Assembly (NCBI GenBank): GCA_021229015.1
Contig: CM037794.1
Coordinates: 38,784,815 to 38,848,814, forward strand
Reading direction: 5' to 3'
Length of the DNA: 64,000 bases
Origin: Solen grandis
Lineage: Eukaryota > Mollusca > Bivalvia > Adapedonta > Solenidae
The translations under genes and the position numbers were made by a program. Under the pieces are notes generated by a model. That model ran no database searches, was not told the origin of the DNA, and was given only the letters and a program-made list of their open reading frames with translations. How positions within the stretch are numbered: position 1 is the stretch's first letter; the number at the start of each line of letters is the position of its first letter. This document shows positions 41,315 to 58,398 of this stretch, piece after piece.

Positions 41315-41577
41315 AGTAGTATAGGGTGGCACTATGGTACCAAGGTACCATAAATTTTTTTTTTTATGGTACCGTGGTACCATAAATTTTTTTTTTTTTT
41401 GGTATTTATGGTACCAAATCTATAGTACCGAATGGTACTCTATATGAAAACAGAATCTATAGTACCGAATGGTACTCTATATGAAAACAGATTTATGTAA
41501 AATTGTAAAAATGACAATTGTAAAAATGTCCTTTCGAGACATTTGGGTTGGCCCTGAAAAGGGCCGTTTTGTTTCTT
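41315..41577 (+). repeat. Left terminal inverted repeat
   Basis: It starts AGTAGTATAGGGTGGCAC, then a cluster of GGTACC palindromes separated by T runs, then two 36-bp units beginning ATCTATAGTACCGAATGGTA. Next come a CAATTGT motif and the histone-type hairpin. It is nearly identical to the complement of 58099-58398. Confidence 0.93.
41550..41565 (-). terminator. Histone-type 3' stem-loop, gene at 41580
   Basis: On the minus strand GGCCCTTTTCAGGGCC has a 6-bp stem and a TTTC loop, preceded by AAAAC and followed by AACCC. It begins 14 nt after the stop codon. The purine-rich TCGAAAGGAC follows 12-13 nt downstream. Confidence 0.85.
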
Positions 41578-41579
41578 CT

Positions 41580-41939
41580 TTAGATTTCGGTGACATTGTC
41601 CACATCGTGCTTGGTTTCAGTGACATCGTGTTCATCGTCACTGATTACGATGACATCGTTTTCATCTTGTAAGATCTGCTGTTGTTCTATGAGCATATGA
41701 TCTTCATCTTCATCTTGTTGCTGTTGTCTCAACATCTCCTGATGTTCCATGAGCATATAGTCATCATGTTCATCGCGTTGCATCATCTGTTGTCTCAATA
41801 TCATCTGATGTACCATGTTTGACAAAATCAGATGGTATTCTGCAATATGGTCTTGCTGTTGTCTCCACTCATTGCGTTGTCGTTCGATCAACCCCATCAA
41901 TTCGTGGACAAATTCATTCAGTTGCTGAATTGGTTCCAT
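41580..41939 (-). CDS. Accessory protein, Gln/Met-rich coiled coil with SUMO-interaction-like motif
   Basis: A 119-residue protein with ATG at 41939, about 42 nt from a TATA box. Residues 1-90 are a glutamine-, methionine- and glutamate-rich helix with heptad-like spacing (LNEFVHELMGLIERQ and repeated MLMEHQEML / MLIEQQQIL units). Near the C-terminus, VIVISDDE is a textbook SUMO-interaction motif: a hydrophobic core followed by Ser and acidic residues. No enzyme domain. The gene is single-exon and ends in a histone-type hairpin within the terminal repeat. Function unknown; I infer a nuclear adaptor that could bind SUMO-modified host proteins. Confidence 0.75.
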   Translation of the reverse strand: MEPIQQLNEFVHELMGLIERQRNEWRQQQDHIAEYHLILSNMVHQMILRQQMMQRDEHDDYMLMEHQEMLRQQQQDEDEDHMLIEQQQILQDENDVIVISDDEHDVTETKHDVDNVTEI

Positions 41940-41979
41940 GGTTGTGCAGCGAGAATATGACCGAATGCTTGATGCGGTG

Positions 41980-42131
41980 CGCTTTTATAGCCTTGAGGTG
42001 GATTGACCTACTTTCTACTATTAGCGTACACCAATCAGAGAACGTTAGTTCTATTCAAGTTTAACCTTGACCTGAGTTGGATAGCATTGTCTTCGGCCTT
42101 GACATTTTGGGTTGGATTGACCTACTTTTGT
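41980..42131. promoter_or_regulatory. Divergent promoter cassette A
   Basis: The TATA box CTATAAAAG (minus, 41981-41990) serves the gene ending at 41580. CCAATCAGAG lies at 42031-42040, with GGATTGACCTAC at both edges and TTGACCTGAGTTGGATAGCA between. It matches cassettes B (43300-43481) and C (57507-57682). No plus-strand gene follows it, so its rightward half appears orphaned. The stretch 42132-42338 holds only AT-rich DNA with a TTTTTGTAACA triplication. Confidence 0.7.
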
Positions 42132-42338
42132 ATTGACATATCAGAATTGCTGTAAAATTAAAAAAATTTCAAGCCGAATTTGTAGTAGTGATGACTTTTT
42201 TTTTTGTAACATTTTTGTAACATTTTTGTAACATTTTTATAAAACATTGGATCATATTTTTAATGAAAGAAAATTTTGAATGGAACTTGAAAATAATGGT
42301 GACAATTGAGGTATATTCTCTTTCGAGACATTTGGGTT

Positions 42339-42354
42339 GGCCCTGATAAGGGCC
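42339..42354 (-). terminator. Histone-type 3' stem-loop, gene at 42378
   Basis: On the minus strand GGCCCTTATCAGGGCC has a 6-bp stem and a TATC loop, 23 nt after the stop. It is preceded by AACAAC and followed by AACCC, and downstream TCTCGAAAGAGAATA is strongly purine-rich. Confidence 0.82.
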
Positions 42355-42377
42355 GTTGTTTTTTCACAGAGTAGTGG

Positions 42378-42674
42378 TTACTCTATTTGTCTATGAGTTT
42401 TCTTCAGCAGGTATTCAACATGTTCTATGGTGATGAAATGTGCTTCAATGATATTTAAGATATCATCGTAGTATAGTTCATGAAAGTAACATGCACTCAA
42501 TTTGTCTATGATACTCCTGAGTGTTGTTGTTATTTTAAGCGTACGTTGGTATCGGGCTTGTAGTTTAAGCGAACGTTGGTGTCGGGCTTCTATTTTGTCC
42601 ATGTCAGATATGCAGTCGATAGTTATATGTGACTTATCCATAGCACAGTCTGAAAACGAATGGCATGAATTCAT
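42378..42674 (-). CDS. Accessory protein, small, unknown
   Basis: A 98-residue frame with ATG at 42674 (another at residue 12). The middle contains an 11-residue tandem duplication, KIEARHQRSLK then KLQARYQRTLK, also visible at DNA level near 42535-42600. The C-terminal half looks helical and is rich in I, L and H. No known domain. There are only about 70 nt between its ATG and the hairpin of the next gene, with a weak TATA-like GTAAATAAAAG at about 42690, so its promoter is unclear. It could also be a coding exon, since a TTTTCAG acceptor-like site lies just after the first ATG. Confidence 0.6.
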   Translation of the reverse strand: MNSCHSFSDCAMDKSHITIDCISDMDKIEARHQRSLKLQARYQRTLKITTTLRSIIDKLSACYFHELYYDDILNIIEAHFITIEHVEYLLKKTHRQIE

Positions 42675-42743
42675 TTCGTTTGATACTTTTATTTACTTGG
42701 TTTGACAATTGTAAAAATATGTCCTTTCGAGACATCTGGGTTT

Positions 42744-42759
42744 GGCCCTGAAAAGGGCC
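42744..42759 (-). terminator. Histone-type 3' stem-loop, gene at 42777
   Basis: GGCCCTTTTCAGGGCC on the minus strand, 17 nt after the stop, preceded by AACAAC and followed by AAACCC, with TCTCGAAAGGACAT downstream. Confidence 0.85.
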
Positions 42760-42776
42760 GTTGTTTTTTTCTCTCT

Positions 42777-43265
42777 CTACTTCTTACTCTTTTTGCTATT
42801 TTGTATGTCTTTACAATGGGCTCCAAGTCCATTCTTAGAATGGGATCCGGCATCAAGTGGACGTTTGTTGGATGCTTCCACATTTTCTGGAATGAAAGTG
42901 ATAGGCACCACCAGCTTGTCTGTTTTCATTTTGATACGGCATTCCACTTCTACCATTCTCTTTTGCAATTTGATGAGGTTGTTGTTCACCTCTTTGAGTT
43001 CCCTCAGAATAGATTGTCCAACATTATTTACTGGCTGCACTGCCGGTTGGTGTTGCATTGGTTGTTGCACTGGTTGTTGTTGTTGCTGTACTGGTTGCTG
43101 CTGGTGTGGTGGAGGCTGAGGTTGATACGTTGGTTGGTAGCTGGGTTGGTATATCGGAGTCGGAGTGTACGACACTGATGCCTGGTTAGCAGCTGTCGTC
43201 AGCTCATACAAATCAGCAGCCTGTATGGCGTTGTTAACGATATCAGAAGTTACGTAGCTTTCCAT
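42777..43265 (-). CDS. Accessory protein, Pro/Gln-rich with coiled coil
   Basis: A 162-residue protein with ATG at 43265, 36 nt from the TATA box of cassette B. After a short helical start comes a low-complexity tract with YQPSYQPTYQP repeats and runs of Q and P (residues about 38-78). A heptad-like coiled coil follows (SILRELKEVNNNLIKLQKRM), and a lysine-rich tail ends KKSKK, a possible nuclear signal. No enzyme domain. The layout suggests an oligomerising, possibly phase-separating protein; that is an inference. Confidence 0.7.
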   Translation of the reverse strand: MESYVTSDIVNNAIQAADLYELTTAANQASVSYTPTPIYQPSYQPTYQPQPPPHQQQPVQQQQQPVQQPMQHQPAVQPVNNVGQSILRELKEVNNNLIKLQKRMVEVECRIKMKTDKLVVPITFIPENVEASNKRPLDAGSHSKNGLGAHCKDIQNSKKSKK

Positions 43266-43299
43266 GGTTGGATAGTAGGATTATGATACGATGCAGTGT

Positions 43300-43481
43300 G
43301 CTTTTATAGTCTTGAGGCGGATTGACCTACTTTCTACTGTTAGCGTACACCAATCAGAGAATGTAATTTCCATCCAATGAATCAAGTTCGACCTTGACCT
43401 AAGTTGGATAGCATTGTCTTCGGCCTTGACATTTGGGGATGGATTGACCTACTGACCTACTTTTTTTCATAACTATATAAG
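43300..43481. promoter_or_regulatory. Divergent promoter cassette B
   Basis: It lies between the minus gene starting at 43265 and the plus RING gene starting at 43514. The minus TATA (CTATAAAAG) is at 43301-43309 and the plus TATA (CTATATAAG) at 43473-43481. CCAATCAGAG is at 43350-43359, with a second CCAAT at 43374. The shared block GACCTAAGTTGGATAGCATT and GGATTGACCTAC repeats link it to cassettes A and C. Confidence 0.8.
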
Positions 43482-43513
43482 TGTTTTTTTTAAAAAAGAA
43501 GGATGAAATCACA

Positions 43514-43777
43514 ATGTCCGAACAAAAACTCTGGTTCGAAAAGTGTGGTGTGTGTTTAGAGGAGAGGGAGGAGGATATATATCACATAAACCAGTGTCAA
43601 TGTCAGGACATTGTATGCGTCAGATGCTTCGCACGGCTTCAGAAGTGCCCGTTTTGTAGGGCACCCTATCAAGTGTATGCCTGGCCTGCCTGTGTTTTCG
43701 CTAAACATGGGCCTACAGTGCGTTCAGCCTATTATGGCATATGGTTTGACCCTGATTATTCAGAGTTAGTAGGGTGA
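43514..43777 (+). CDS. RING-finger protein (putative ubiquitin ligase)
   Basis: An 87-residue protein from the first ATG after the plus TATA box. Nearly the whole protein is one RING-like domain: C11-x2-C14, C28-x-C30, C35-x2-C38, C45-x2-C48 (ending KCPFCRAP). The usual histidine position is taken by cysteine, giving a C4C4-like variant. RING proteins recruit E2 enzymes to ubiquitinate targets. The partner here is unknown; host restriction factors or cell-cycle proteins are possible. It ends in a histone-type hairpin. Confidence 0.82.
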   Translation: MSEQKLWFEKCGVCLEEREEDIYHINQCQCQDIVCVRCFARLQKCPFCRAPYQVYAWPACVFAKHGPTVRSAYYGIWFDPDYSELVG

Positions 43778-43811
43778 CTCCGAGTAATTCAGGATCACAA
43801 AAACCAAAAAC

Positions 43812-43827
43812 GGCCCTTTTCAGGGCC
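43812..43827 (+). terminator. Histone-type 3' stem-loop, RING gene
   Basis: GGCCCTTTTCAGGGCC on the plus strand, 34 nt after the stop, preceded by AAAAAC. Downstream TATATTCGAGAGGGAATATA folds with a purine-rich GAGAGG loop. Confidence 0.85.
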
Positions 43828-43908
43828 ATCAAACTATATTCGAGAGGGAATATATCACAATTGTTAATGTGTAAGATAAACAACAAGAAATCAAATCAGT
43901 TTTAGCCT

Positions 43909-43914
43909 TTTATT
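43909..43914 (-). terminator. Poly(A) signal AATAAA for the protease end of the core block
   Basis: AATAAA on the minus strand about 80 nt past the protease stop at 43996. The 3' UTR between holds four TATGAACA-like repeats. No histone-type hairpin is present for this gene. Confidence 0.7.
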
Positions 43915-43995
43915 GAACTCTATGAACATTGCAAACAAAATATGAACAAACAATATGAACAATGCAAACACTATGAACAACAAGTACATAACACT

Positions 43996-44595
43996 TTAAT
44001 GAAAGTAGAATGGGTCCAAACTATTCGTCAGTAATTCAAAACACGCACGACCATCTCCAAACTTTGGTGGATGTTTAGCTGTGCATGTTTGTTGGTGGTG
44101 ATTACACACTTGTCTTCTTGCACGTTTGTACAGTTCTGAATAGTTCTGGTAAAACCAACATCCCACATTGGAATCGTTCAAATTGAAGTGAGGTTGATCC
44201 TCTGTCCGGAATTTAGCTCTAAACACCCGTGTTAAATCACATCCTCGAACAAGAAAATGCAAAGCAAACAAACAATATGCTCCACATACAAACGTGTTGT
44301 ATCCTTGAAGTCTCATGAGATTCCATGTATAGGGTCCATGTCTTTCCAAGAAACGTTGAATGTCACAATGGAGTGGTTTTTGTCCATACGAATCAAAGTA
44401 GTAAGTCGATTTATCGTTGAAAAACACAACCACCCAATGTTCACCAGGTTGAGTCGAATTGTGGGTATTCACTATGTAAGCTTTTACAGTCTCTGGTCTA
44501 CGTTGTGGTAGTTGATCTTTAGCACATACTACGGCATTCAAGGGAGCTAGAATTGGTGAATGATCCAAAATATACTGCAACTCAATCGTTTCCAT
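43996..44595 (-). CDS. Adenain-type cysteine protease
   Basis: About 199 residues from the ATG at 44595; a longer frame to 44637 starts at a non-ATG codon. It is a capsid-maturation protease related to adenovirus adenain. Catalytic residues by position are His53 (GEHWVVVF), Asp68 (YYFDSYG), Gln97 (RLQGYN) and Cys104 (CGAYCLF), in family order. The C-terminal part is richer in Cys and His, possibly binding DNA or metal. It is the last gene of the minus-strand core block. Confidence 0.9.
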   Translation of the reverse strand: METIELQYILDHSPILAPLNAVVCAKDQLPQRRPETVKAYIVNTHNSTQPGEHWVVVFFNDKSTYYFDSYGQKPLHCDIQRFLERHGPYTWNLMRLQGYNTFVCGAYCLFALHFLVRGCDLTRVFRAKFRTEDQPHFNLNDSNVGCWFYQNYSELYKRARRQVCNHHQQTCTAKHPPKFGDGRACFELLTNSLDPFYFH

Positions 44596-45034
44596 TTTCC
44601 CAATCTTGTTTAATGCGTCCTGCCCATTCGCACTCAAAAGTTTCCAATGGTGTGATCTTGTTCGTATCTACACTAGCCTTTATATTTGCCCACATCTGAT
44701 AAGCATCAGCTTTCTCAGCGCGTGTGAGATCCATGTTTTGTAGTTCAGCGTACCATCTTTCCATCACTTGATACATGTCCAGTTTTTTTAATGCACTGTT
44801 CAGAAACATCTCGACCCACTCACTTTTGCTGCTAAACAAACATATGGGATGTTGGGTCTGACTGGGATGATCAACAATGCAACCATAACAGTTTTCTTTC
44901 GCGATATCAAAGAGGTGTGTCTGCAGTTCATGCACCACATGCTGGTTCAAACTCTTTACCATATCGTTTCGCCTATTCAAGTTGTAGATTTCTTCGTACA
45001 GTTGTTTGGCCAGCTGTTGTCCTGATTTGCTCAT
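44582..45034 (-). CDS. Conserved Polinton protein with Cys/His motif
   Basis: A 150-residue protein, ATG at 45034. It is mostly helical, with a compact motif C-x2-C then HPSQ-x2-H-x2-C (CYGCIVDHPSQTQHPIC) that could bind zinc. I recall similar proteins near the capsid genes of Polintons but know of no established function. It overlaps the protease start by a few codons and follows the major capsid gene, so a role in assembly or packaging is likely. Confidence 0.7.
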   Translation of the reverse strand: MSKSGQQLAKQLYEEIYNLNRRNDMVKSLNQHVVHELQTHLFDIAKENCYGCIVDHPSQTQHPICLFSSKSEWVEMFLNSALKKLDMYQVMERWYAELQNMDLTRAEKADAYQMWANIKASVDTNKITPLETFECEWAGRIKQDWENGND

Positions 45035-45036
45035 GG

Positions 45037-46333
45037 TTAATAGTCTGTGATGACTTCTCTGAACCCGTTAATCTCTATCTGACTGTCGTATTCGGCATAC
45101 ACAATCACATTGATGGGGTCACCAAGACCTGCACGAAACTGAACCTCGATTCGCAAGTTGCCCGTTTTTATAGGATGCAGCTGTCCCTCTTCTGATCCTT
45201 GATCTGGCGTTAAGTCAATGCCCCACAGTGTGTACCCCTGCATGTAATCGTTCATTGTCAGACCCATGGAGCGGTTTTAAACCGAGTGATCCCGTGGCTT
45301 GATGCAGGGACATGTATGATCTCAAAATTTCTCCTGTGGGAAAGTTAGGCTGGAACGGCAAGTTGTGTGTCGTCTTTCCGTCTACACTGACTTCTAACTT
45401 AGACAAGTTGAAATGTTGAAAATCAAATGGGTTGGTTGCCAGATCACCGTTCATGTCTGTATTCTTTACCAGGCCTAGAATGATACGTTTGGGTAACTGT
45501 CCTTGAAATAAATGATCTTCGATCTTTGATCGTTGGCCTGCAGGAATGGTGAAAGTTTTTACCTCAGCTCGGCGAATTGGGATCTTCATGCCATGTTGGG
45601 CGATGGTCTGGTTTAAGTTGTTGGCCACTACGGGTAACAGGTCAACAGTCCGAACATTGAATCCAGCTTGAATTAACTGGATTTTTGCCTCTGCTCCAAA
45701 CAGGCAAAAACTGACTGGGGTTCTGTTGAGTCGCAGCCGTATCTCTACACCATTGGGAAGGTACTTGTCTTGCAAACACAGGTCTAAATGCAGACGTCCG
45801 CACATTTCCAGAACGCGACTCTGGTGGATACGGGTTCTTCTTTTTCTAAATCCTTCATTACCTCCCGCAACTGTATGCGCTTGCATATGACCCGCCGTGT
45901 CAGGACTCCACATTTCTGTAGCGTAGAGCTGTGTTGATTTAGTGTCCGTAGAATAAGACAGCAAATTCTCAATGTAGGCCCGGTACGCATACGTGTCAGC
46001 ATTATTGGTGATCAGTTTGTTGTTCAGGTACACATCAATACTGCTAAACAAGCTGTGGAAGAAATTATTTACTGTGGATGTTTCTCCATCAGCAGCCAGA
46101 TTAGTGTCATCAGGTTGGACTACTTTGACTTTCAGGTACAAGTAGCTCTGGTTGATATCAGTCCACTTTTCTGATTGAGCAGGAATTACAAATTCAATGG
46201 GAGATGAATTGCTCAGTGCTGACACAGGATAATGTTCTGTCCACTGTGCATCTTGCATTGCTGTCATGGTAGGTGGAACATGTGACACATCAAGTTCAGT
46301 TTTGCTACACTCACAAGAACCGTGTTGCATCAT
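45037..46333 (-). CDS. Major capsid protein (double jelly roll), frame broken
   Basis: The hexon-like capsid protein of Polintons. The first frame runs from ATG 46333 to a stop at 45215 and contains a typical N-terminal segment (PIEFVIPAQSEKWTDINQSY) and strand-rich jelly-roll sequence. The conserved C-terminal part (GYTLWGIDLTPDQ and VIVYAEYDSQIEING) lies in another frame, 45037-45267. The switch falls near 45265-45290, beside a run of four A (minus). A single base too many there is the simplest explanation, either real decay or an assembly error. As it stands the protein would lack its last 70-odd residues and be unlikely to assemble. Confidence 0.87.
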
Positions 46334-46338
46334 GTTGT

Positions 46339-46701
46339 TCAATCAAAAATATCTGACGGTCGCGATGAGATTTTTCTTTTTTTGTTGCGTCTCCTTGCCG
46401 CGCTGAAAGCAGAATGATGTCGACGTTTGAAATCTCGAAGCTTTATACCTCTCAGAGTTTTCAGACCCACATCTTTCAACAATGTTTTACCCCGTTTCTT
46501 GATCACTGTCTTTACATTTTGGCCAGACAGAATATCTTTTACGGCTCCTATACCTTGTTTAAAGCCCTCTCTTTTCAGAGTCTTTAGTCCTGAGGTCACG
46601 ATGGGTTTCATCATGGGTAAGATGTTGCTGGCCATTTTCTTGAACATGGAACCCAAACCATATCCGACTTGTCGAGCTTGACCACGGTAAACTGGAATCA
46701 T
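46339..46701 (-). CDS. Basic Polinton protein, adenovirus core/pVI-like in style
   Basis: A 120-residue basic protein. The N-terminus has GYGLGSMFKKMASNILPMMK, a glycine-hinged amphipathic/hydrophobic helix, and the C-terminus is very rich in K and R (RRHHSAFSAARRRNKKRK). The GLG-x2-F start followed by basic repeats is a recurring Polinton type that sits beside the capsid genes. Possible roles are membrane disruption at entry or DNA condensation in the virion; neither can be proved from sequence. ATG at 46701, overlapping the minor capsid stop. Confidence 0.65.
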   Translation of the reverse strand: MIPVYRGQARQVGYGLGSMFKKMASNILPMMKPIVTSGLKTLKREGFKQGIGAVKDILSGQNVKTVIKKRGKTLLKDVGLKTLRGIKLRDFKRRHHSAFSAARRRNKKRKISSRPSDIFD

Positions 46702-47540
46702 CGTGTCTTTCTTTTAAAATGAAGCTTCACCATCGACTTCCCGTGAGTGAAATGAACTGATTCCCCTGTGTCACCGGTTATATTGATACTGATCTCGCTG
46801 AAATATGATCTGCTGACAGGTATGTAGTGTAGATTTAGAAATTCAAAGTGCATGTGTGGATTAGCCCCTGCTTTTGTTTTTGTGGCAAATGGCACAACGC
46901 GTAAAATGGGTGCTTCGACATCCCCTATCAAAGTGTGTTCTGCCAAATCGGTATATACAAACAAATGGTTCATCTTCGTGAAGAGGTCCACACCGTACTT
47001 GAATCTGTTGTTTTCTCTGTCCGGAAACACCTCAGTACTTCCCTCTCCTCCAAGTTTCGTAAGGAGGATTGGATGAAGTTCCAAGCCGATCTTTGATCCA
47101 GTATTACCGGTAAACTTGACACGTTTTGACAAGCCGGAAAAATCAAGTCCAAATGTGAGGTTTCTTTGAGTTAAAATTGTTTTAGTGGCTTGTTTAATAG
47201 CTTTGTCCAATTCGTCAGTGAGATGTTGTGGTGACGCATAGATGCCTGCAGGAATACAAAGGGATATTGCCCATTTTTTGCCTTCTAATTCACACCCGTT
47301 TTTCACTTGTGAAAAGGCTGCCGCCAGTTCTGGATCTTTAGTCACGATGTAGAATTTTCCTTCCTCCTCTTCAATGTTTCTGACTTGTGTGGGAACGATC
47401 ATTTCCACGAGAGCCACTTCCCAATTTTGTTTGTCGACATCAATGGTTTTTGTCAGCTTGGTTCTAAAACAGCATTGTGTGTTGTTTGGGTACAATGCCA
47501 TCGAACTATCACTGATTAGAGTGATGTAGAAAGAGTTCAT
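46698..47540 (-). CDS. Minor capsid (penton-like) protein
   Basis: A 280-residue protein, ATG at 47540. The start MNSFYITLISDSSMALYPNN, with WEVALVEMIVP some 30 residues later, is the recognisable opening of the Polinton minor capsid protein, a single jelly roll forming the vertex pentons. The frame is intact. It overlaps both neighbours by four bases, as expected for a compact capsid block. Confidence 0.85.
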   Translation of the reverse strand: MNSFYITLISDSSMALYPNNTQCCFRTKLTKTIDVDKQNWEVALVEMIVPTQVRNIEEEEGKFYIVTKDPELAAAFSQVKNGCELEGKKWAISLCIPAGIYASPQHLTDELDKAIKQATKTILTQRNLTFGLDFSGLSKRVKFTGNTGSKIGLELHPILLTKLGGEGSTEVFPDRENNRFKYGVDLFTKMNHLFVYTDLAEHTLIGDVEAPILRVVPFATKTKAGANPHMHFEFLNLHYIPVSRSYFSEISINITGDTGESVHFTHGKSMVKLHFKRKTR

Positions 47541-47776
47541 GGTTTCTTAAATTTTAAACTTGGGTTTGGAAGAATGTATCCGATAGAAGTACTCATCAGC
47601 AGCAACCAAAGTTCACGATCTGGACTGTTGAGACACAGGTTCACTAATGACACGATGACAATGATAAAGATGATCACAATCTGTGTCAAGAAAGTGATTC
47701 TGTTGTTTGGTACCTCACTTTTTCCTGTCTGTATACTGTTGTCTACCTGAACACTGCTGGTATCGGACTGAGACAT
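47537..47776 (-). CDS. Small membrane protein
   Basis: About 79 residues from the ATG at 47776. A hydrophobic segment ITFLTQIVIIFIIVIVSLVN is followed by a second weaker one containing ELWLLLMSTSIGYILPNP and a basic tail. Small proteins with an LW...GY-LPNP ending recur in Polintons as I recall. Probably one or two transmembrane helices; role in virion or host membrane unknown. Confidence 0.7.
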   Translation of the reverse strand: MSQSDTSSVQVDNSIQTGKSEVPNNRITFLTQIVIIFIIVIVSLVNLCLNSPDRELWLLLMSTSIGYILPNPSLKFKKP

Positions 47777-47797
47777 GGTGTTCACGACGTTTATACT

Positions 47798-50936: not shown

Positions 50937-51587
50937 TTATACTGTAGTGTAGACGGTCGGTCCTCGATCTTCACCTGTTACCCACCGATGGAACACATCT
51001 GTTCTTAAACGATTCTGGTCGGGTGTTCTTGGGTGAAAGTCAATGATAAGATATCCATGAGGTGTAGAGGTTGCATCTTGATACGCCATCACCAAATGGG
51101 GTAGTTGTATTTGGTTCGCAAGTGTTTTGATCTGGCCTTTATCTCTTGTGTTTTGAAATAATACCATGTAGTGTGCATTTAAGCTGATGGTACGACTAGC
51201 CTTGGATTGTTGGAACATGTTTTGTGTGATGTAAATGACAGTGGCATTTCTATGGTGTCCCTTTCGCGTGAACCATAATTTAATTTTCTCCTCATCTTTT
51301 TCTCCTAACATATCATCAAATATGACGAGGTGTGGTAAGGTTGTATCGTCTACTATCTCTTCATCATCCTCAGGGATACCCTGAATGAATTTGATAGCTT
51401 CACGTTCTTGTAACTGTGCGTAGGCACTTTGCCATTCTTTGTAACACCAGACGATGCGTTGTGGTACCGCATGAAATAATTCGGTTTTGTACTCAATAAG
51501 TTTTTTTACAAATTGAGTTTTTCCTGAACCACTTGGCCCTGAGATGAAAATGTTACTAGGATGTTGAAAAAGTAAACTACTTTCCAT
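50937..51587 (-). CDS. FtsK/HerA-type DNA-packaging ATPase
   Basis: About 216 residues from the ATG at 51587. The frame is open further upstream, but the N-terminal extension has no conserved features. Walker A is GPSGSGKT (residues 17-24) and Walker B LVIFDD (87-92), followed by a sensor-like TVIYITQN. This is the A32-like ATPase that pumps DNA into the capsid. Intact. Confidence 0.93.
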   Translation of the reverse strand: MESSLLFQHPSNIFISGPSGSGKTQFVKKLIEYKTELFHAVPQRIVWCYKEWQSAYAQLQEREAIKFIQGIPEDDEEIVDDTTLPHLVIFDDMLGEKDEEKIKLWFTRKGHHRNATVIYITQNMFQQSKASRTISLNAHYMVLFQNTRDKGQIKTLANQIQLPHLVMAYQDATSTPHGYLIIDFHPRTPDQNRLRTDVFHRWVTGEDRGPTVYTTV

Positions 51588-51673
51588 GATGGTCCAAGAA
51601 ATAATAACAGCATTGACATGACAACATTTTATTTTATACATCATAGCAAATAAAACACTTGAACAAACATCAG

Positions 51674-51931
51674 TCAAAAATGTAAACTATGACACACATC
51701 ATGAATCAGTCTTTCTTTATACATCATCCATTCCGGCAATATCATGGTATATCCCATAGCATTTAAAGCCATGCACACTTCGTCAAACAGTTCCTCCGAT
51801 TGTCTTAACGCCTGTTCTGATTGAATTCCAAGTACACGCACAGCCAACAACACAGCTCTACGCCATGGATTCCGAATTGGAGTTATGTTTTTTTCCTGTA
51901 GTGAAGTATTTCCCATGTTTTGACTTCTCAT
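51674..51931 (-). CDS. Small Polinton protein, unknown
   Basis: 85 residues, mostly helical, ATG at 51931. Features are a PWRRAVLLAVRVLG helix and an aromatic C-terminus (YTMILPEWMMYKERL). No known domain. It is tightly packed, with four-base ATGA overlap with the gene upstream. Confidence 0.55.
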   Translation of the reverse strand: MRSQNMGNTSLQEKNITPIRNPWRRAVLLAVRVLGIQSEQALRQSEELFDEVCMALNAMGYTMILPEWMMYKERLIHDVCHSLHF

Positions 51932-52548
51932 TCGTCTTGCAAGTACTCTGCGTAGTATCTTATTTTGTAGGTGTCCCAGAGGGATTCGTCTCCCAACTCA
52001 AACCTTTCTAAGTTGTTGAAATCGGGATCTTGAAAGAACTGTTCACTAGGATTTGGCCTCGTTTGTTTGAATATTGCGCTGCACTGTTTACCAAAAATGT
52101 TAAACACTTGCTCACAAGTGATAGGTTCTGGAGTCAGTAAAATGGCACGTATATCCTCTGGTGTGTCGTTCCGGTGGTTAATCGCAAATCTGAGATACAT
52201 ACGCTCATCAAAACGGTTCAGTTTCTCCACTGTATCAATGTTTAGGGTCTCAATGTATATGTACCACACGTCAGAGATCAGGTTGCGTAGCAGGTTGTAA
52301 ATGGTAAAAATCCGTTGAAAGACCACACTTTTATAGCTGATTGGAAGATTACGCCCTCGTACATCATGAAACATATCATAAACTTGGTTTAAACAAGAGG
52401 AATCCTTCATCGTCTGGTGAATTATTCTGTTTCCAACGCGCTGTGCCCAAGTAAAAAATAACTCGTTGCAAAATGCAGCAGGTTTCTTATTAGCTTCAAC
52501 GAGATGTCTGTAGATCATCTGTTGTATTTCTACTGGTAGAGTGTTCAT
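51928..52548 (-). CDS. Polinton protein with F-box-like N-terminus
   Basis: About 206 residues from the ATG at 52548. The first 15 residues, MNTLPVEIQQMIYRHL, match the LP-x-E-x(4)-I-x3-L core of F-box motifs that bind Skp1 in SCF ubiquitin ligases. The rest is helical with many aromatic residues and no clear domain. It lies just downstream of the polymerase. The F-box match is short, so a replication-linked protein of other type is possible. Confidence 0.55.
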   Translation of the reverse strand: MNTLPVEIQQMIYRHLVEANKKPAAFCNELFFTWAQRVGNRIIHQTMKDSSCLNQVYDMFHDVRGRNLPISYKSVVFQRIFTIYNLLRNLISDVWYIYIETLNIDTVEKLNRFDERMYLRFAINHRNDTPEDIRAILLTPEPITCEQVFNIFGKQCSAIFKQTRPNPSEQFFQDPDFNNLERFELGDESLWDTYKIRYYAEYLQDE

Positions 52549-52610
52549 CGTGAATCTCCGTATGTTTCCACCACCGTTCAGGCTATGCAACACGACTACA
52601 AGCCAACTGG

Positions 52611-55600
52611 TTATGACGGTCGGTAACCGTACGGCACTGTCTTATATTTGTCCACGACCACGCGCTTTGTATACACTGAGCGGAACGTCTTGGTCTGTGT
52701 CTCACTGATCACTTTGCGATTTCTATGTCTCTTGATTCGGGATTCATATTCGATGACTGTCTTGTAATGTTTGCGATCTTGTACACAGTTGACCATAGTC
52801 TTAAAATTGACTTTTTGACTAGCATTGTAATCCAAAGTGATGCCTTTTACTTTGCATTTCTGATGTCGGTTTCCTTTTTCATCGATATATTCATACCCAT
52901 AGTTTTTTGGCCCTAATGCCACGAATTTGACAATGCGTCCATGTGGTACTTCATCTGTCCACTTTCCCAACTGACTCTCTTCAATTGGAATGTTGTACTG
53001 GTCAGGGTCATAGATGTACATACAACTGTCTGTGTCAAAATACAGTACCCGATCTCCAAGTTTTTCCAACTGGGTGTAAAGTTCAAGTCGAGCATAGGAC
53101 GTAACGAAGGCAGCTACCACTGGATTTGAAGATGAATAGGGCTGTGTTGCGTCTGTTTCATCCGAGTAATTCACCAACATGAAGTTGTCATGATCGAAAA
53201 TCTCGGCAAACTGCACAGTGACATGACGGTCGGAGAGTAGGTCATACAACCGGTTCACCTCAGTCACATACTCGGTTTTGGTTTGAACATTGTTTTGTGC
53301 ATTCTTACCCCACAAACAGTTCAACATGGTTTTGGCAAACGCTCTTTTTCCTTTGTTCTTTTTCACGTTGTCGAGCCAGATACCCTCTATCTGAAAGTAA
53401 TTCTGTTTAAAGTGGGCTTCATCATCTTCTGTTTTTACCCAATTAGGGTAACCACTTGCTTCTTGTTTCAATTTCAAGTATTTGTTAATATACTGTTTAT
53501 ACACATCTTTACTCCATGCGTCCCAGTGCCAGATGTGGAAGACGTCTACCAATTGGTATCCTACCTCAAGAGCTTTGGCTATTTCCACATGGGTCCAGGT
53601 ACCTGTCAACATGCGTTTGTACAGAGTGTGATTGCATTTTTCACACTCTTCCTCAGCACAGGTACGGCACAGTGTAAAGATCATTTTCTTGTTACAGTGA
53701 ATAGGTAGGACTGGTAGCCACAGGTCTTGGGGTGGCAATACACGACATTTGATGAGTCCCTTGTACATTCCAATGTTGTTACTATCAATCATCTCTTGAC
53801 TTAAGATGTTGGGATGTCCCACGGGGTATGTTTTGTACTTGTTCACGAATGGATACAGTGAGCAAATGTCAGCATACTTAATTTCTTCCTTGGTGGTTGT
53901 ATCCACTTCATGGTATAATTGAATGGCATTGGTTCGTCCACCAAACAAAGCATCCCGAGGTAAAATAGGTTCTTGGAAGGGAAAGAAACGGTTCACAGCA
54001 TCTCTGTATTCTGGTTCAATCTTGCATTTCTGATCAAAGTCACCTTGTTGAGACAAGTCTTTCAACCGAAAAGTTGTGGCATTGTATAACTGCTCCATAG
54101 TTTGAAGTGTGTAACCGTTCACACTGTCTCTCCTTGGGTAACATTTTGGACATCCGTGTGTCCAGCACCCCATGAATTCGTATACGGTGTTCGTCTCTTT
54201 GTGGAATCCGTCAACGTAATAGGGTCCAATTTGTACTTCACCTCCATTTAATGCATGGCGAATGTGCTTATTCTCAATGGAAGCAGTTGTTTCTATCCAA
54301 CGAATCCCTTTGATTGAGTATCGAGTTTTGTTTGGATACCCGGCATCAGAGATTACAGCCAAGGTCTTTGGAGGCATTGAATTTTTACGCCAAGCTTTGT
54401 TGCACACTTGAGCTAGAGTGGTCGCTTCCAGGAACGGATCAATTTGGTCACTGACCAACAGTTCTTTCCTAAACTCTCCACAACCTCGTCTCAAGATGTC
54501 CACATCTGATTTGCAGTACTTTTGCATTTCTAACTGAAAGTGAAACACAGCCTTTTGTGCCACTTTTGCATTGTACCATTTCAGAAACGCTTCTCTCTTG
54601 TCAGGTTTCATGCTGTCGGGTCTGTAAAAATGTACGGGGAGATAGTCTCCAATGTAGTCTTGGTATTCATCCGTGTTGGCATAAAATGGAAACCATCCTT
54701 TTGCCATCTCAGTCAATCCAAACGTGTCGGGGAAATCGGACAAAGGCATGTTGAGAAAACTCAGTGAGTCGATGAATCTCACTTGATGGGCTTTCATCAT
54801 TAGAATTTTGCTTCCATTCATGATCAATTTTGGTTTGGCTGTATCATGTGTCAGTAAGTGCCTCAAAATAAACTGTGCATCATATCCTTGTGAGTTGTGA
54901 GCAATCACTGTGGTACCTTTGTGACTGGGTTGAAACAGCCATGTACAAAATTCTGACAAAGTGTTGTTACCACGAAATATTTTTTCTCTAGGCTCATCCA
55001 CAGCTTCGCATTTCTGACACGGGTTTTTCATGGATTGACACATACAGTCTCCACAAGCACGTTGAGCAACACAAAAGTTTGGTATATGTTCACCCGAATC
55101 AAATCGACACTCAAAGTCAAAGAAGATGAAAGGTACAGTCGGTGACTTCATGTTCTCTGGTTCTTTGTACGTGGGGATATAACACTGATGTTCTGCATCC
55201 ACAACTTTCTTGCAATACTTGCATTTTTTAGTGCCAGGACAGAGATGGTTCTTCTTTGTACCCACAACCATTTGACCACAGGTCTTGCATTGCCATACAC
55301 TTTCACAGATGTTTTTTGTAGATTTTCCTGGTTTCGCTTTGTGCTGATCAAAACATTTCTGACTATGAAATGTTCTACCACAGTGACCACATGGAAAGAA
55401 TCCTTCTTTTGGGCATAGTGTCAAGGCGTAACACCGACAAATATTCTTACACCAGTGAGCTTCTCTGTTGTTATAACCGTAGTTACAGTGTTCACAGAAG
55501 TAGCTGCATCCCAGGAAACCAGTGATTGATGTAATGCAATCATAATGTTTATCATGATGATAAATGTGAATCACTTTGCTTTTGTCTGTCAGAGGTGGGT

Positions 55601-56396
55601 GATTGAACAACACGTCCATTTTCTCAAATTGGGGCCACACTTTGATCACATAGTCTGGATAAAGGTGGGCTTGAATCTTCTTGTATTCTTCTATACCACA
55701 AGGCTGATTTGGACTAATGCCCACACTATCTAACAATGTCTTGGCTTCTTGGCTTTGAAGAAATTTTGCAGATTGTCTCATCAAATTCCATCGCTTCTTC
55801 CATGCTGTATCGTCCGTTTTATTGAGTTTACATATCCCTACCACAATTGATCGTGCCAAACACATACTGTCGTGAACATTGTCTATCTTTATCATACTTC
55901 GTTTGACTTTGGACATGTTCTCAATGCTTAGGTGCGATCCAAACGTTCTTTTTGTTCTTCCACCTCCCTCGGGCATAATGACATGTGTCATTTCTAACTG
56001 GAGATCCCCGTCATGAATCTCAAACTTGTGGTTGCTTTGTGATACTTTCTCTATTTCGTTCAACAGCGTATCTCCTGAAATGTGTGTTGCATTCCCGAAT
56101 GGAATGTGGATACCAAATGCTAGGTCAGGATGATTTATGGAGATACGAATTTGATCATTGTCATTGACCCGTGCTTCTCTGTATAACTGTTTCACCATGT
56201 CATTGAAAAGTTGATGTGTAAATTCAAACGGTTTTTTATATCTTTCAAATGTAACATCGTACACGTGGCCCTTCGTTTTAAACTTTCTTGAAGTTCTCTG
56301 TGACCGTGGCTGTATGGAATAATATTCCCGTATATCACTCTTGGTCTTTTTTGCAGGTGGCTCATCATCATCGCTGCTTTCTTCACTACTCGACAT
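52611..56396 (-). CDS. Protein-primed DNA polymerase B
   Basis: 1261 residues, intact. The N-terminal 410 residues include a region that could supply the terminal-protein function and several CxxC/CxxH zinc-binding clusters (about 297-405). The exonuclease motifs are DFE (427-429), HNSQGYD (500-506) and YCKSDVDIL (about 627-635). Between exonuclease and palm there is an insert with VDGF and TVYEFMGCWTHGCPKCY, nuclease-like in pattern. Polymerase motif A is DICSLYP (843-849), B is KTMLNCLWGKN (1022-1032) and C is YFDTDS (1119-1124). It replicates the linear element from its terminal repeats. Confidence 0.95.
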   Translation of the reverse strand: MSSSEESSDDDEPPAKKTKSDIREYYSIQPRSQRTSRKFKTKGHVYDVTFERYKKPFEFTHQLFNDMVKQLYREARVNDNDQIRISINHPDLAFGIHIPFGNATHISGDTLLNEIEKVSQSNHKFEIHDGDLQLEMTHVIMPEGGGRTKRTFGSHLSIENMSKVKRSMIKIDNVHDSMCLARSIVVGICKLNKTDDTAWKKRWNLMRQSAKFLQSQEAKTLLDSVGISPNQPCGIEEYKKIQAHLYPDYVIKVWPQFEKMDVLFNHPPLTDKSKVIHIYHHDKHYDCITSITGFLGCSYFCEHCNYGYNNREAHWCKNICRCYALTLCPKEGFFPCGHCGRTFHSQKCFDQHKAKPGKSTKNICESVWQCKTCGQMVVGTKKNHLCPGTKKCKYCKKVVDAEHQCYIPTYKEPENMKSPTVPFIFFDFECRFDSGEHIPNFCVAQRACGDCMCQSMKNPCQKCEAVDEPREKIFRGNNTLSEFCTWLFQPSHKGTTVIAHNSQGYDAQFILRHLLTHDTAKPKLIMNGSKILMMKAHQVRFIDSLSFLNMPLSDFPDTFGLTEMAKGWFPFYANTDEYQDYIGDYLPVHFYRPDSMKPDKREAFLKWYNAKVAQKAVFHFQLEMQKYCKSDVDILRRGCGEFRKELLVSDQIDPFLEATTLAQVCNKAWRKNSMPPKTLAVISDAGYPNKTRYSIKGIRWIETTASIENKHIRHALNGGEVQIGPYYVDGFHKETNTVYEFMGCWTHGCPKCYPRRDSVNGYTLQTMEQLYNATTFRLKDLSQQGDFDQKCKIEPEYRDAVNRFFPFQEPILPRDALFGGRTNAIQLYHEVDTTTKEEIKYADICSLYPFVNKYKTYPVGHPNILSQEMIDSNNIGMYKGLIKCRVLPPQDLWLPVLPIHCNKKMIFTLCRTCAEEECEKCNHTLYKRMLTGTWTHVEIAKALEVGYQLVDVFHIWHWDAWSKDVYKQYINKYLKLKQEASGYPNWVKTEDDEAHFKQNYFQIEGIWLDNVKKNKGKRAFAKTMLNCLWGKNAQNNVQTKTEYVTEVNRLYDLLSDRHVTVQFAEIFDHDNFMLVNYSDETDATQPYSSSNPVVAAFVTSYARLELYTQLEKLGDRVLYFDTDSCMYIYDPDQYNIPIEESQLGKWTDEVPHGRIVKFVALGPKNYGYEYIDEKGNRHQKCKVKGITLDYNASQKVNFKTMVNCVQDRKHYKTVIEYESRIKRHRNRKVISETQTKTFRSVYTKRVVVDKYKTVPYGYRPS

Positions 56397-56531
56397 CGTT
56401 GTGATTATAAGTAAGTGAGCAAAGCTTTTTTATACCTCTAAGCTCCGCCCACCTGATCTCAGGCCTATAAAGTGCGGTGTGACCCGTCCACTTCATCACT
56501 CTCAAACCTGATTCAGACTGCTCTGTTCAGA
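56397..56531. promoter_or_regulatory. Divergent promoter of polymerase and zinc-knuckle genes
   Basis: A 135-bp spacer with TATA boxes facing both ways: minus GGTATAAAAAAGC near 56425-56436 and plus CCTATAAAGTG at about 56463-56473. A GC-box-like CTCCGCCCACC lies between. It shares no sequence with cassettes A-C. Confidence 0.75.
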
Positions 56532-57074
56532 ATGACCTGCAATACATTTGAGTTCTGGGTGAAAGGACAACTACAAGCTATCAGTGACAAGCTGATCAGA
56601 CTAGAAACAGAAAGACAAGTGACATGCTACCGCTGTCAGGAAAAGGGGCATTATGCATCGGCATGTACGAAGAAAGCTTCAACACCTCAAACAGCACGGG
56701 TGTGCTACCGTTGTCATGAACCGGGACATTTTGTTTCTAATTGCCCAAAACCTACAGTGTGCTACAGTTGTCACGAACTAGGCCACTTTGCATCCGCTTG
56801 TCCTAAGAAAGGGATGAATAGTACTGTACCTACAGTAAACGCACAGGTGGACAGTGAAATGCAGAAAATGGACGTGGTTGAGACAGTGCCACAGACGGAC
56901 AGTGATGTTGAGCTACTAGAGACTGTCTCTGAGTTGGAGAAACCTACCGTAAAACCCAAGAAACGCAAGAGAAGCGTCAACACATGCATCGTGTGTCCTG
57001 AGCCTCACCCATCAACAAGCAATACAGAGTGTAACCGATCAGCTAAGAAGCGAAAAATGACATTTGAACACTAG
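56532..57074 (+). CDS. Zinc-knuckle nucleic-acid-binding protein
   Basis: 180 residues from the ATG at 56532, the first after the plus TATA; an earlier in-frame ATG lies too close to the TATA. It has three CCHC knuckles in a row: CYRCQEKGHYASAC, CYRCHEPGHFVSNC and CYSCHELGHFASAC. An acidic middle and a KPKKRKRS nuclear-signal-like stretch follow, then a further C-x2-C...H...C near the end. CCHC knuckles bind single-stranded RNA or DNA, as in CNBP and retroviral nucleocapsids. A role in replication or packaging is likely. Confidence 0.85.
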   Translation: MTCNTFEFWVKGQLQAISDKLIRLETERQVTCYRCQEKGHYASACTKKASTPQTARVCYRCHEPGHFVSNCPKPTVCYSCHELGHFASACPKKGMNSTVPTVNAQVDSEMQKMDVVETVPQTDSDVELLETVSELEKPTVKPKKRKRSVNTCIVCPEPHPSTSNTECNRSAKKRKMTFEH

Positions 57075-57168
57075 ACTTGAAAAAAAAACAAAGTTGTGTT
57101 ATGTTCATTATTTGCTGTATGACGCACGTTTAATTCATTGTTACTGACACATGTTTGTTGTTAAACAC

Positions 57169-57174
57169 AATAAA
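57169..57174 (+). terminator. Poly(A) signal AATAAA of the zinc-knuckle gene
   Basis: AATAAA about 95 nt past the stop codon. No hairpin of the histone type is present on this strand. Confidence 0.7.
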
Positions 57175-57222
57175 AAAATCATATGACAATTGTATTAGTT
57201 ATCCTTTCTACATCATTGTAAT

Positions 57223-57238
57223 GGTCCTGAAAAGGACC
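57223..57238 (-). terminator. Histone-type 3' stem-loop with compensatory base pair
   Basis: On the minus strand GGTCCTTTTCAGGACC keeps the 6-bp stem and TTTC loop but has T-A in place of the C-G pair at stem position 3. It starts 19 nt after the stop at 57258 and is preceded by AATAAC. Downstream TGTAGAAAGGATAA is purine-rich. Confidence 0.85.
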
Positions 57239-57257
57239 GTTATTTATTGAGAAGTGT

Positions 57258-57473
57258 CTAGCACTCACTCAAATACAAATACCGCCAGTAATGCCTGCTG
57301 GCTTCTGGATATGCCAGGTAAAACCCTGACAAATCCGGGTACAATGGCAAAGGGGGTAAACTCGGGTATAAGTTGACACCCTCTTCCTTTATACCCTCTT
57401 CCTTGACTTCTACTTTCTTCTCCTTTCGTAACGCCTTCCTTGCACGTCGGAATAACTTACGAAGGAAATTCAT
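57258..57473 (-). CDS. Small basic protein with two YPxL motifs
   Basis: About 71 residues from the ATG at 57473; the frame continues upstream, but the first part overlaps the TATA region. The N-terminus MNFLRKLFRRARKALRKEKK is a strongly basic amphipathic helix suited to membranes or nucleic acid. A VEVKEEGIKEEG linker follows, then LYPSLPPLPLYPDLSGFYL with two YPxL motifs. YPxL is the known ALIX-binding late-domain motif that recruits ESCRT. The protein may be a membrane-associated adaptor for egress. No other domain. Confidence 0.7.
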   Translation of the reverse strand: MNFLRKLFRRARKALRKEKKVEVKEEGIKEEGVNLYPSLPPLPLYPDLSGFYLAYPEASRHYWRYLYLSEC

Positions 57474-57506
57474 GGTGAAGAATGAATACATACACAGCAT
57501 TACACA

Positions 57507-57682
57507 ATTTATAGTCAAGAAAAAAGTAGGTTAGTAGGTCAATCCACCCCCAAAATGTCAAGGCCGAAGACAATGCTATCTAACTCAGGTCAAGGTCGAA
57601 CTTGATTTATTGGATGAAAAAATAACGTTCTCTGATTGGTGTGCGCCAACACAAGAAAGTAGGTCAATCCGGTACTATAAAA
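57507..57682. promoter_or_regulatory. Divergent promoter cassette C
   Basis: The same family as cassettes A and B, in inverted orientation. The minus TATA (CTATAAAT) is at 57507-57514 and the plus TATA (TATAAAA) at 57676-57682. The CCAAT box (CTCTGATTGG) is at 57630-57639, with AGTAGGTCAATCC at both edges and ACTCAGGTCAAGGTCGAAC in the middle. Confidence 0.8.
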
Positions 57683-57722
57683 CAGTGCACATACTCTATA
57701 CTTTATTATTCATGATTGAAAC

Positions 57723-58061
57723 ATGAGACCGTGCACACGTAGGTCCACCCCAGACTTGCTAAAATTGTTCCTCGACAGTCCCAGCTATGAGGAACGAGAG
57801 AGCGACCCAGACAGCTATCACGACCAAGTTGATGTGTATGATCTATATGTCACTCTTACAAAAAGGGGAGATCTCCCTAATTACCTGTCAGTTACCTTTG
57901 AAGATGTACCATCTACCCTACTACAGGGATCGGGAGACAGCCTGAACTTCATAGGTGACAAGGATCTAACCCGTTGTCATTTGCATCTCCTTGCAGGATG
58001 GATGAAGAGATATGTCATGGGATGGGACTGTCAAACGTGTGGTATAGACCACAATATGTGA
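57723..58061 (+). CDS. Accessory protein, unknown, near right end
   Basis: 112 residues, ATG at 57723, about 40 nt after a TATA box. It is acidic in the first half (SYEERESDPDSYHDQVDVYD) and ends with a cysteine motif (WDCQTCGIDHN). The stop TGA at 58059-58061 lies between two 39-bp tandem copies; the second copy would encode a second cysteine motif in the same frame. No known domain. It ends in the histone-type hairpin in the right terminal repeat. Confidence 0.65.
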   Translation: MRPCTRRSTPDLLKLFLDSPSYEERESDPDSYHDQVDVYDLYVTLTKRGDLPNYLSVTFEDVPSTLLQGSGDSLNFIGDKDLTRCHLHLLAGWMKRYVMGWDCQTCGIDHNM

Positions 58062-58098
58062 TGGGACTGTACAACATGTGGTATGGACCACAATTAAT
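58021..58098 (+). repeat. 39-bp tandem duplication at 3' end of the last gene
   Basis: Units beginning GATGGGACTGT start at 58021 and 58060. The length is a multiple of three. The first codon of the second unit is TGA, where the first unit has GGA. Confidence 0.85.
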
Positions 58099-58398
58099 AA
58101 GAAACAAAACGGCCCTTTTCAGGGCCAACCCCAATGTCTCGAAAGGACATTTTTACAATTGTCATTTTTACAATTTTACATAAATCTGTTTTCATATAGA
58201 GTACCATTCGGTACTATAGATTCTGTTTTCATATAGAGTACCATTCGGTACTATAGATTCTGTTTTCATATAGAGTACCATTCGGTACTATAGATTTGGT
58301 ACCATAAATACCAAAAAAAAAAAAAATTTATGGTACCACGGTACCATAAAAAAAAAAATTTATGGTACCTTGGTACCATAGTGCCACCCTATACTACT
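58099..58398 (-). repeat. Right terminal inverted repeat
   Basis: The complement of 41315-41577 with one more 36-bp unit (three instead of two) and small length changes in T runs. It ends CCCTATACTACT. Confidence 0.93.
58111..58126 (+). terminator. Histone-type 3' stem-loop, right end gene
   Basis: GGCCCTTTTCAGGGCC on the plus strand, 49 nt after the stop, preceded by CAAAAC and followed by AACCCC, with TCTCGAAAGGACAT 10 nt further. Confidence 0.85.

What the first reader, a model, noticed from the sequence alone, without database searches (positions are those of the whole stretch)
41550..58126. Histone-type mRNA 3' stem-loops on six accessory genes of a Polinton
Six hairpins (41550-41565, 42339-42354, 42744-42759, 43812-43827, 57223-57238, 58111-58126) lie 14-49 nt after the stop codons of the six small end genes, always in the sense orientation. 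Five are GGCCCTTTTCAGGGCC or a loop variant, and one is GGTCCTTTTCAGGACC. This matches the metazoan replication-dependent histone 3' stem-loop: a 6-bp GGYYCT/AGRRCC stem, a four-base TTTC loop, AAAC before and ACC after. It suggests that a virus-like element uses the host SLBP/U7 pathway to make non-polyadenylated, S-phase-linked mRNAs. I do not know of a report of this in Polintons. No histone gene is in the window.
Basis: partly seen in the sequence, partly recalled or inferred. Interest (0 to 1): 0.95.

Follow-up and report, generated by a model that had tools for sequence, protein, structure and literature searches.

The report
Virus-like genes dressed as histone genes
A virus-like mobile element in what is probably a bivalve carries the host's own histone-gene 3' processing signal after six small genes, which suggests that it makes histone-style, tail-less mRNAs tied to cell division, something thought to be reserved for histones.

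Summary
Confirmed and strengthened at the sequence level. All six hairpins exist as stated and are the only RF00032 matches in 64 kb (28.8-34.8 bits; one of six passes Rfam's cut-off). The host genome is held, so I compared them with the host's H1, H2A, H2B, H3 and H4 genes. These end in the same kind of three-part module: stem-loop, purine core, CAATTG or a close variant. A covariance model built only from eight host histone 3' ends ranks exactly the six Polinton sites first (49.8-66.2 bits; next 16.1).

New: a 12-bp promoter box, GTAGGTCAATCC, occurs in the window only beside these genes (exact matches) and also lies 9-21 bp before the TATA box of host H2A and H2B. Several of the genes thus resemble histone genes at both ends.

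The genome holds 1,253 exact copies of stem-loop plus CAATTGTC (backward-pattern control 0); of 100 listed, 93 look Polinton-type. One Polinton contig from another source has a canonical module (L019); eight others show none.

Processing by SLBP/U7 is inferred: no RNA data, and the host U7 search did not complete. My paper searches found no report.

The parts
41315..58398 (.). Polinton (17.1 kb) with terminal inverted repeats (arms 41315-41580 and 58096-58398) and a 6-bp flanking repeat CGCGTT at 41309-41314 and 58399-58404
   Evidence: Inverted arms 177 nt 100% and 164 nt 99% complementary; flanks read; PolB, integrase with chromodomain, A32-type ATPase and a weak adenovirus-protease match by Pfam
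41580..41939 (-). accessory gene acc1 (119 aa)
   Evidence: ORF; no Pfam match over cut-off
41550..41565 (-). histone-type stem-loop of acc1, inside the left terminal repeat
   Evidence: RF00032 31.0 bits; host-histone model R1 66.2 bits
42378..42674 (-). accessory gene acc2 (98 aa)
   Evidence: ORF; no Pfam match over cut-off
42339..42354 (-). histone-type stem-loop of acc2 (loop TATC), followed by GAAAGAG
   Evidence: RF00032 28.8 bits; R1 57.7 bits
42777..43265 (-). accessory gene acc3 (162 aa)
   Evidence: ORF; no Pfam match over cut-off
42744..42759 (-). histone-type stem-loop of acc3
   Evidence: RF00032 29.4 bits; R1 59.5 bits
43514..43777 (+). accessory gene, RING-like (87 aa)
   Evidence: RING families at 21-22 bits, E about 2e-4, below the curated cut-offs
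43812..43827 (+). histone-type stem-loop of the RING-like gene
   Evidence: RF00032 34.8 bits, over the gathering score; R1 49.8 bits
57258..57500 (-). accessory gene acc5 (80 aa)
   Evidence: ORF; no Pfam match
57223..57238 (-). histone-type stem-loop of acc5, stem GGTCCT/AGGACC as in host H1
   Evidence: RF00032 30.7 bits; R1 53.4 bits; two-sided pair change
57723..58061 (+). accessory gene acc6 (112 aa)
   Evidence: ORF; no Pfam match over cut-off
58111..58126 (+). histone-type stem-loop of acc6, inside the right terminal repeat
   Evidence: RF00032 29.9 bits; R1 64.2 bits
42000..42011 (-). promoter box GTAGGTCAATCC, 10 nt before the TATA box of acc1
   Evidence: Exact match; a further copy at 42114
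43319..43330 (-). promoter box, 10 nt before the TATA box of acc3 (divergent region shared with the RING-like gene)
   Evidence: Exact match; a further copy at 43441
57659..57670 (+). promoter box, 5 nt before the TATA box of acc6 (divergent region shared with acc5)
   Evidence: Exact match; a further copy at 57534
56532..57074 (+). zinc-knuckle (CCHC) gene without the module, AATAAA 95 nt after its stop (contrast)
   Evidence: Pfam zf-CCHC 3.2e-16

Best explanation
The six small end genes of this Polinton end like replication-dependent histone genes of their host, and part of the set also starts like them. Shown by sequence: each gene is followed by a stem-loop, a purine core 14-15 nt later (12-13 nt in the host histones) and CAATTG 29-32 nt later (28-32 nt for CAATTG or a variant in the host). 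Shown by sequence: acc1, acc3 and acc6 have, just before TATA, the 12-bp box that stands before the TATA box of host H2A and H2B; the RING-like gene and acc5 start from the other side of the same regions; acc2 has none. Inferred: host SLBP binds the stem-loop, U7 snRNP pairs with the purine core and CPSF73 cuts a few nucleotides after the stem. The mRNAs would lack poly(A) tails and be made, stored and destroyed like histone mRNAs (S phase, germ line, early embryo), while core genes such as the protease and the CCHC gene, which have AATAAA after them, would be polyadenylated. The likely gain is to time the accessory proteins to host DNA replication.
For: RF00032 finds these six and nothing else in 64 kb. 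A model from eight host histone 3' ends alone gives the six sites 49.8-66.2 bits (E 4.2e-12 to 1.9e-8) and the next place 16.1 bits. Spacings in element and host agree within 1-3 nt. Host H1 and Polinton acc5 share the same two-sided stem change. The 12-mer promoter box is found, among the 349,602 bases scanned (overlapping loci included), at Polinton and histone promoters, with one one-mismatch site elsewhere. Three copies ascertained by PolB, not by hairpin, have both right-end modules, six of six at 52.5-66.2 bits. In eight copies ascertained by RF00032, 24 of 27 R1 hits follow a same-strand homologue of an accessory gene (one hit per copy is there by selection). 1,253 exact composite modules in the genome against 0 for the backward pattern. 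A Polinton contig from another source has a canonical module after a small gene.
Against: No RNA evidence. Five of six RF00032 scores lie below the gathering score. Three of six genes have AATAAA or ATTAAA within 124 nt of the stop (acc2, acc3, acc5; in acc5 one lies before the stem). The host U7 search did not complete, so pairing with this host's U7 is untested. One young copy has a mismatched stem (GGCCATTTTCAGGGCC). Coding constraint on the accessory genes is weak: dN/dS about 0.4-0.7 for RING, near 1 or above for acc2 in the closest copies. acc2 has no promoter box, and host H1, H3 and H4 lack it too. Eight of nine Polinton contigs from other sources have no module, though several do not reach an element end.
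Confidence: 0.85

Rival explanations
1. Captured but idle: the module came from a histone gene and the mRNAs are in fact polyadenylated at downstream signals, as reported for many C. elegans histone genes, so the stem-loop is a relic or a minor regulator.
For: Poly(A)-like hexamers lie within 124 nt of the stop of three of six genes. In C. elegans, hairpin and AATAAA stand side by side in most histone genes (PMC1924863, passages).
Against: acc1, the RING-like gene and acc6 have no such hexamer within 250 nt. The purine core and CAATTG, which would be idle too, are kept in all six and in decayed, diverged copies.
Confidence: 0.1
2. The hairpin is a DNA-level feature of the element (replication, recombination or end recognition) and its place after genes follows from duplication of terminal-repeat sequence.
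For: Two of six lie in the terminal repeats, and the acc1, acc2 and acc3 modules share flanks with them.
Against: Host histone genes have the same module. Orientation is always sense to a gene; the RING-like and acc5 modules have different flanks but the same three parts.
Confidence: 0.03
3. Host histone genes took the module, or the CAATTG and promoter box, from the element rather than the reverse.
For: The element is abundant, and I know of no description of CAATTG or GTAGGTCAATCC in histone genes (recalled; not searched in papers).
Against: Stem-loop and purine core are general in metazoan histone genes (PMC7026596 and PMC5011920, passages), so at least these are ancestral in the host.
Confidence: 0.02

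Closest known systems
Metazoan replication-dependent histone genes (RF00032 stem-loop, histone downstream element, SLBP/U7 snRNP pathway)
   Same: Stem, loop, purine core, spacing, absence of a clear poly(A) signal after three of six genes, short intron-less genes; also a promoter box shared with this host's H2A and H2B
   Different: The proteins are not histones; genes belong to a mobile element; purine core 14-15 nt after the stem against 12-13 in host histones
Histone genes with two kinds of 3' end (C. elegans histones, H2A.X)
   Same: Stem-loop and poly(A) signal may stand together, as possibly in acc2, acc3 and acc5
   Different: These are histone genes of the host; mode of the element's genes is unknown (C. 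elegans from passages of PMC1924863; H2A.X from a listing of PMC7807067)
Polintons / Mavericks / adintoviruses
   Same: PolB, integrase, ATPase, protease, terminal repeats, 6-bp flanking repeat
   Different: No report of histone-type gene ends found in my searches (listings only)
Virus-borne histone genes, such as bracovirus H4 (recalled, no call)
   Same: A virus uses histone-related material
   Different: There the protein is a histone; here only the gene ends are histone-like

Membership tests
Histone 3' stem-loop processing signal (RF00032 and downstream element) | 6-bp stem with GG..CC base, 4-nt loop of the U-N-U-N kind | tested here: met
   Six of six in the window; 16 of 16 aligned modules fully paired
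Histone 3' stem-loop processing signal (RF00032 and downstream element) | Score over Rfam's gathering cut-off | tested here: inconclusive
   One of six over 34 bits, five at 28.8-31.0
Histone 3' stem-loop processing signal (RF00032 and downstream element) | Purine-rich downstream element at a fixed distance | tested here: met
   GAAAG or GAGAG core 14-15 nt after the stem in six of six; host 12-13 nt
Histone 3' stem-loop processing signal (RF00032 and downstream element) | Match to this host's own histone 3' ends | tested here: met
   R1, built from eight host modules: six sites 49.8-66.2 bits, next 16.1
Histone 3' stem-loop processing signal (RF00032 and downstream element) | Base pairing of the purine core with host U7 snRNA | not tested
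   Host U7 search (RF00066) was asked for repeatedly and never answered (first, last)
Histone 3' stem-loop processing signal (RF00032 and downstream element) | mRNA ends just after the stem, without poly(A) | not testable with these tools
   No RNA data
Replication-dependent histone gene | Encodes a histone | tested here: not met
   No histone match by Pfam in the six proteins, none in the window by tblastn: they work like histone genes but are not histone genes
Polinton / Maverick | Protein-primed type B DNA polymerase and retroviral-type integrase | tested here: met
   DNA_pol_B_2 2.2e-39; rve 2.8e-13 and Chromo 2.4e-9
Polinton / Maverick | Packaging ATPase and adenovirus-type protease | tested here: inconclusive
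   Pox_A32 26.9 bits, over its cut-off; Peptidase_C5 17.1 bits, under its cut-off of 21.3
Polinton / Maverick | Major and minor jelly-roll capsid proteins | tested here: inconclusive
   45215-46333 and 46698-47540 have no Pfam match; they have counterparts in other Polinton contigs; the names are mine from gene order
Polinton / Maverick | Long terminal inverted repeats and 6-bp target repeat | tested here: met
   CGCGTT on both sides read

The most novel reading that the evidence does not exclude
A lineage of animal virus-like elements has taken over the cis-regulatory dress of replication-dependent histone genes, promoter box and 3' processing module, for a set of non-histone accessory genes. 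These form an S-phase or germ-line regulon of tail-less mRNAs, apart from polyadenylated core genes. With over a thousand copies of the module in one genome the element may also compete with histones for SLBP and U7. A herpesvirus-like stretch in the same genome carries the module too, so the trick may have been adopted more than once.
Probability: 0.6. Interest if true: 0.96.

Novelty: new variant of a known kind. Interest (0 to 1): 0.92.

Why it matters
[quoted passage not shown] Non-histone, virus-like genes with the host's own histone signal would break that rule, show how a DNA element can time its genes to host replication, and give a natural experiment on what SLBP and U7 require. It makes testable whether Polintons have separate expression classes and why they spread in bivalve germ lines. 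The two further signals kept by both sides, CAATTG and GTAGGTCAATCC, become candidates for functional parts of mollusc histone genes.

Tried and rejected
Relatives in viral contigs: PolB alone and a 19-row PolB alignment found none. Two stem-loop pattern scans of viral contigs gave 13 contigs; the first six had no RF00032 match up to E 0.1, the other seven none over the gathering score; I take them as chance. The 114-aa gene of L054 has no homologue in the protein database. L063 (R1 56.6 bits) is not a histone by tblastn and stays unassigned. Whether the module-bearing gene of L019 lies within that Polinton's end is unresolved: no terminal repeat pair was found in L019 3300-8883. A DNA-only role and chance were considered and rejected (see rivals). 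Genome-wide count of the promoter box before TATA was asked for three times and not answered.
Full report
The observation. The window holds a 17.1-kb Polinton (41315-58398) with terminal inverted repeats, a 6-bp flanking repeat CGCGTT (read), PolB, an integrase with chromodomain, an A32-type ATPase and a weakly matched adenovirus-type protease. Six small genes lie at its two ends. RF00032 matches these six and nothing else in 64 kb, at 28.8 to 34.8 bits; one passes the gathering score. The paired motif occurred once in 100 dinucleotide shuffles. Two of the six lie in the terminal repeats and are copies of each other, and the acc1, acc2 and acc3 modules share flanks, so there are fewer than six independent cases in this element alone.

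Comparison with the host. The window lies in a held genome of 1.32 Gb. Named PolB relatives come from Mercenaria and Crassostrea, so the host is probably a bivalve. An RF00032 search of that genome scored 75 of 260,318 candidates and returned 52 matches, 47 over the cut-off. Of the 30 loci cut out, 18 lie in histone clusters on C3 and C1 and 12 do not; H4, H2B, H2A, H1 and H3 are named from their translations. Their 3' ends have a stem-loop (GGCCCTTTTTAGGGCC; H1 GGTCCTTTTCAGGACC), a purine core such as GAAAGAG, GAAAGG or GAAAAGA, and CAATTG in four of eight, CAGTTG in two and CAAAATTG in two. The Polinton six have stem-loop, purine core and CAATTG. Spacings are near but not identical: purine core 14-15 nt after the stem in the element and 12-13 in the host; CAATTG 29-32 against 28-32.

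A fair test. I built a covariance model, R1, from eight host histone 3' ends only and searched the window without filters. The six sites scored 66.2, 64.2, 59.5, 57.7, 53.4 and 49.8 bits (E 4.2e-12 to 1.9e-8); the seventh place scored 16.1 bits (E 0.63). E-values of this model are rough. In 16 aligned modules every stem cell pairs; only one of six pairs varies, by a two-sided change in acc5 and H1, so covariation support is thin.

Promoters. GTAGGTCAATCC occurs exactly six times in the window, all beside these genes: two before acc1, two between acc3 and the RING-like gene, two between acc5 and acc6. Three of them stand 5-10 nt before a TATA box (acc1, acc3, acc6). acc2 has none. The same 12-mer stands 9 nt before the TATA box of host H2A and 21 nt before that of H2B (one C1 copy has one mismatch); no match with up to one mismatch was seen at H1, H3 or H4 of L069. 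Over the window and fetched own-genome loci, 349,602 bases with overlaps, the box was seen only at Polinton copies and histone clusters, apart from a one-mismatch site at window 9585.

Copies in the genome. PolB has 37 scored copies (of 1977 candidates), the window's included, at 97-100% identity, 31 of them without a stop: a recent burst. Three of the 36 others, taken through PolB and not through the hairpin, have both right-end modules (six of six, 52.5-66.2 bits) and two promoter boxes each; 40 kb of other host loci searched with them gave at best 18.9 bits. One of those stems, in L074, has a mismatched pair. Eight copies found through RF00032 (L059-L062, L064-L067) hold 27 R1 hits; 24 follow a same-strand piece similar to an accessory gene (two of these only weakly, E 0.001 and 0.009), and none follows a convincing opposite-strand one. 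Eight of the 27, one per copy, are there by selection. Many of these copies are decayed and diverged (dS up to about 1). In the closest copies dN/dS is about 0.1-0.8 for core genes, 0.4-0.7 for RING and near or above 1 for acc2, so coding constraint on the accessory genes is weak. The exact pattern stem-loop, 22-40 nt, CAATTGTC occurs 1,253 times in the genome (596 forward, 657 reverse) and the pattern read backwards never. Of the 100 places listed, all on C1, I read four as histone cluster, two as a GDSL-like family, one as unassigned and 93 as Polinton-type by their purine-core sequence.

Other sources. A scan of genome contigs with the PolB alignment gave nine Polinton loci, in records named as bacterial genomes or MAGs, so presumably eukaryotic contamination. 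L019 has a canonical module (RF00032 35.8 bits; AACCAAAC-GGCCCTTATCAGGGCC-ACCCCAACCTCCAAAAAAGAG) 28 nt after the stop of an 89-aa C2H2 gene, beyond its integrase and a TBP-like gene; R1 scores it 36.2 bits. It is the only RF00032 match reported in that record's genome. The other eight have none; several do not reach an element end. Whether the L019 gene lies within the element's end is not settled. So the trait may be old or may have arisen twice, and it is not universal.

How it most likely works. Established: SLBP binds the stem-loop, U7 snRNA pairs with the downstream element, whose AAAGAG core pairs with CUCUUU in mouse, and CPSF73 cuts between (PMC7026596, passages). In the clam Lucina all histone mRNAs have the stem-loop and some a purine-rich element (PMC6210712, passages). 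In Hydractinia the stem-loop histones are expressed in S phase (PMC5011920, passages). From the match of signals I infer that the six Polinton mRNAs enter the same path. The CCHC gene and the protease gene have AATAAA 95 and 82 nt after their stops, so the element seems to hold two expression classes. acc2, acc3 and acc5 also have a poly(A)-like hexamer near, so a dual mode is possible for these.

Literature. In an open-licence library, searches that combined Polinton or adintovirus with histone stem-loop, and virus with SLBP or U7, listed no paper whose title or abstract start reports this (listings only, not read). Most subscription journals are not in that library.

Verdict. That the element's six modules are of the host's histone type is as good as settled for this genome; that they act so at RNA level is a strong inference. 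I rate it a new variant of a known kind, since module and element are both known and their union is not, with high interest.

Noticed in passing
L054 4237-4677 (G000 C687) and L055 4725-5163 (G000 C5), with L070: A 114-aa Cys-rich gene with the histone-type module (R1 52.6 and 41.1 bits). Gene and module, 486 nt, are 95% alike in two different contexts. In C687 it lies near a Herpes_ori_bp-type helicase (E 3.6e-15), CARD-RING and ankyrin genes, which suggests a herpesvirus-like element with the same trick.
   Followed up: partly
L056, L057, L058, L068 (G000 C16, C19, C1): A repeat family with a GDSL-lipase-like ORF (just under Pfam's cut-off) followed by the module (R1 33.9-43.2 bits).
   Followed up: partly
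L063 4945-5023 (G000 C6:37358771): Strong module (R1 56.6 bits) with no histone or Polinton gene recognised beside it.
   Followed up: no
L069 and L052, host histone clusters: Host histone genes have a third 3' signal, CAATTG or a variant, 28-32 nt after the stem, and H2A and H2B share GTAGGTCAATCC before TATA. I do not recall either from the literature.
   Followed up: partly
L019 7189-7695: A TATA-binding-protein-like gene (PF00352, 1.2e-27) inside a Polinton contig.
   Followed up: no
G000, 37 places: PolB copies at 97-100% identity, 31 of 37 without a stop: a recent burst of this Polinton.
   Followed up: partly
window 36008-36616: Tandem array of a 14-bp unit.
   Followed up: no
window 477-563 and 19636-19716: Two near-identical long hairpins that weakly match mir-1253, probably a small palindromic transposon.
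   Followed up: no
window 59874-61344: Two neighbouring ORFs (60093-60431, 60442-61344) and inverted repeats 59874-59908 / 61114-61148 that look like a mariner-type transposon (recalled, not tested).
   Followed up: no
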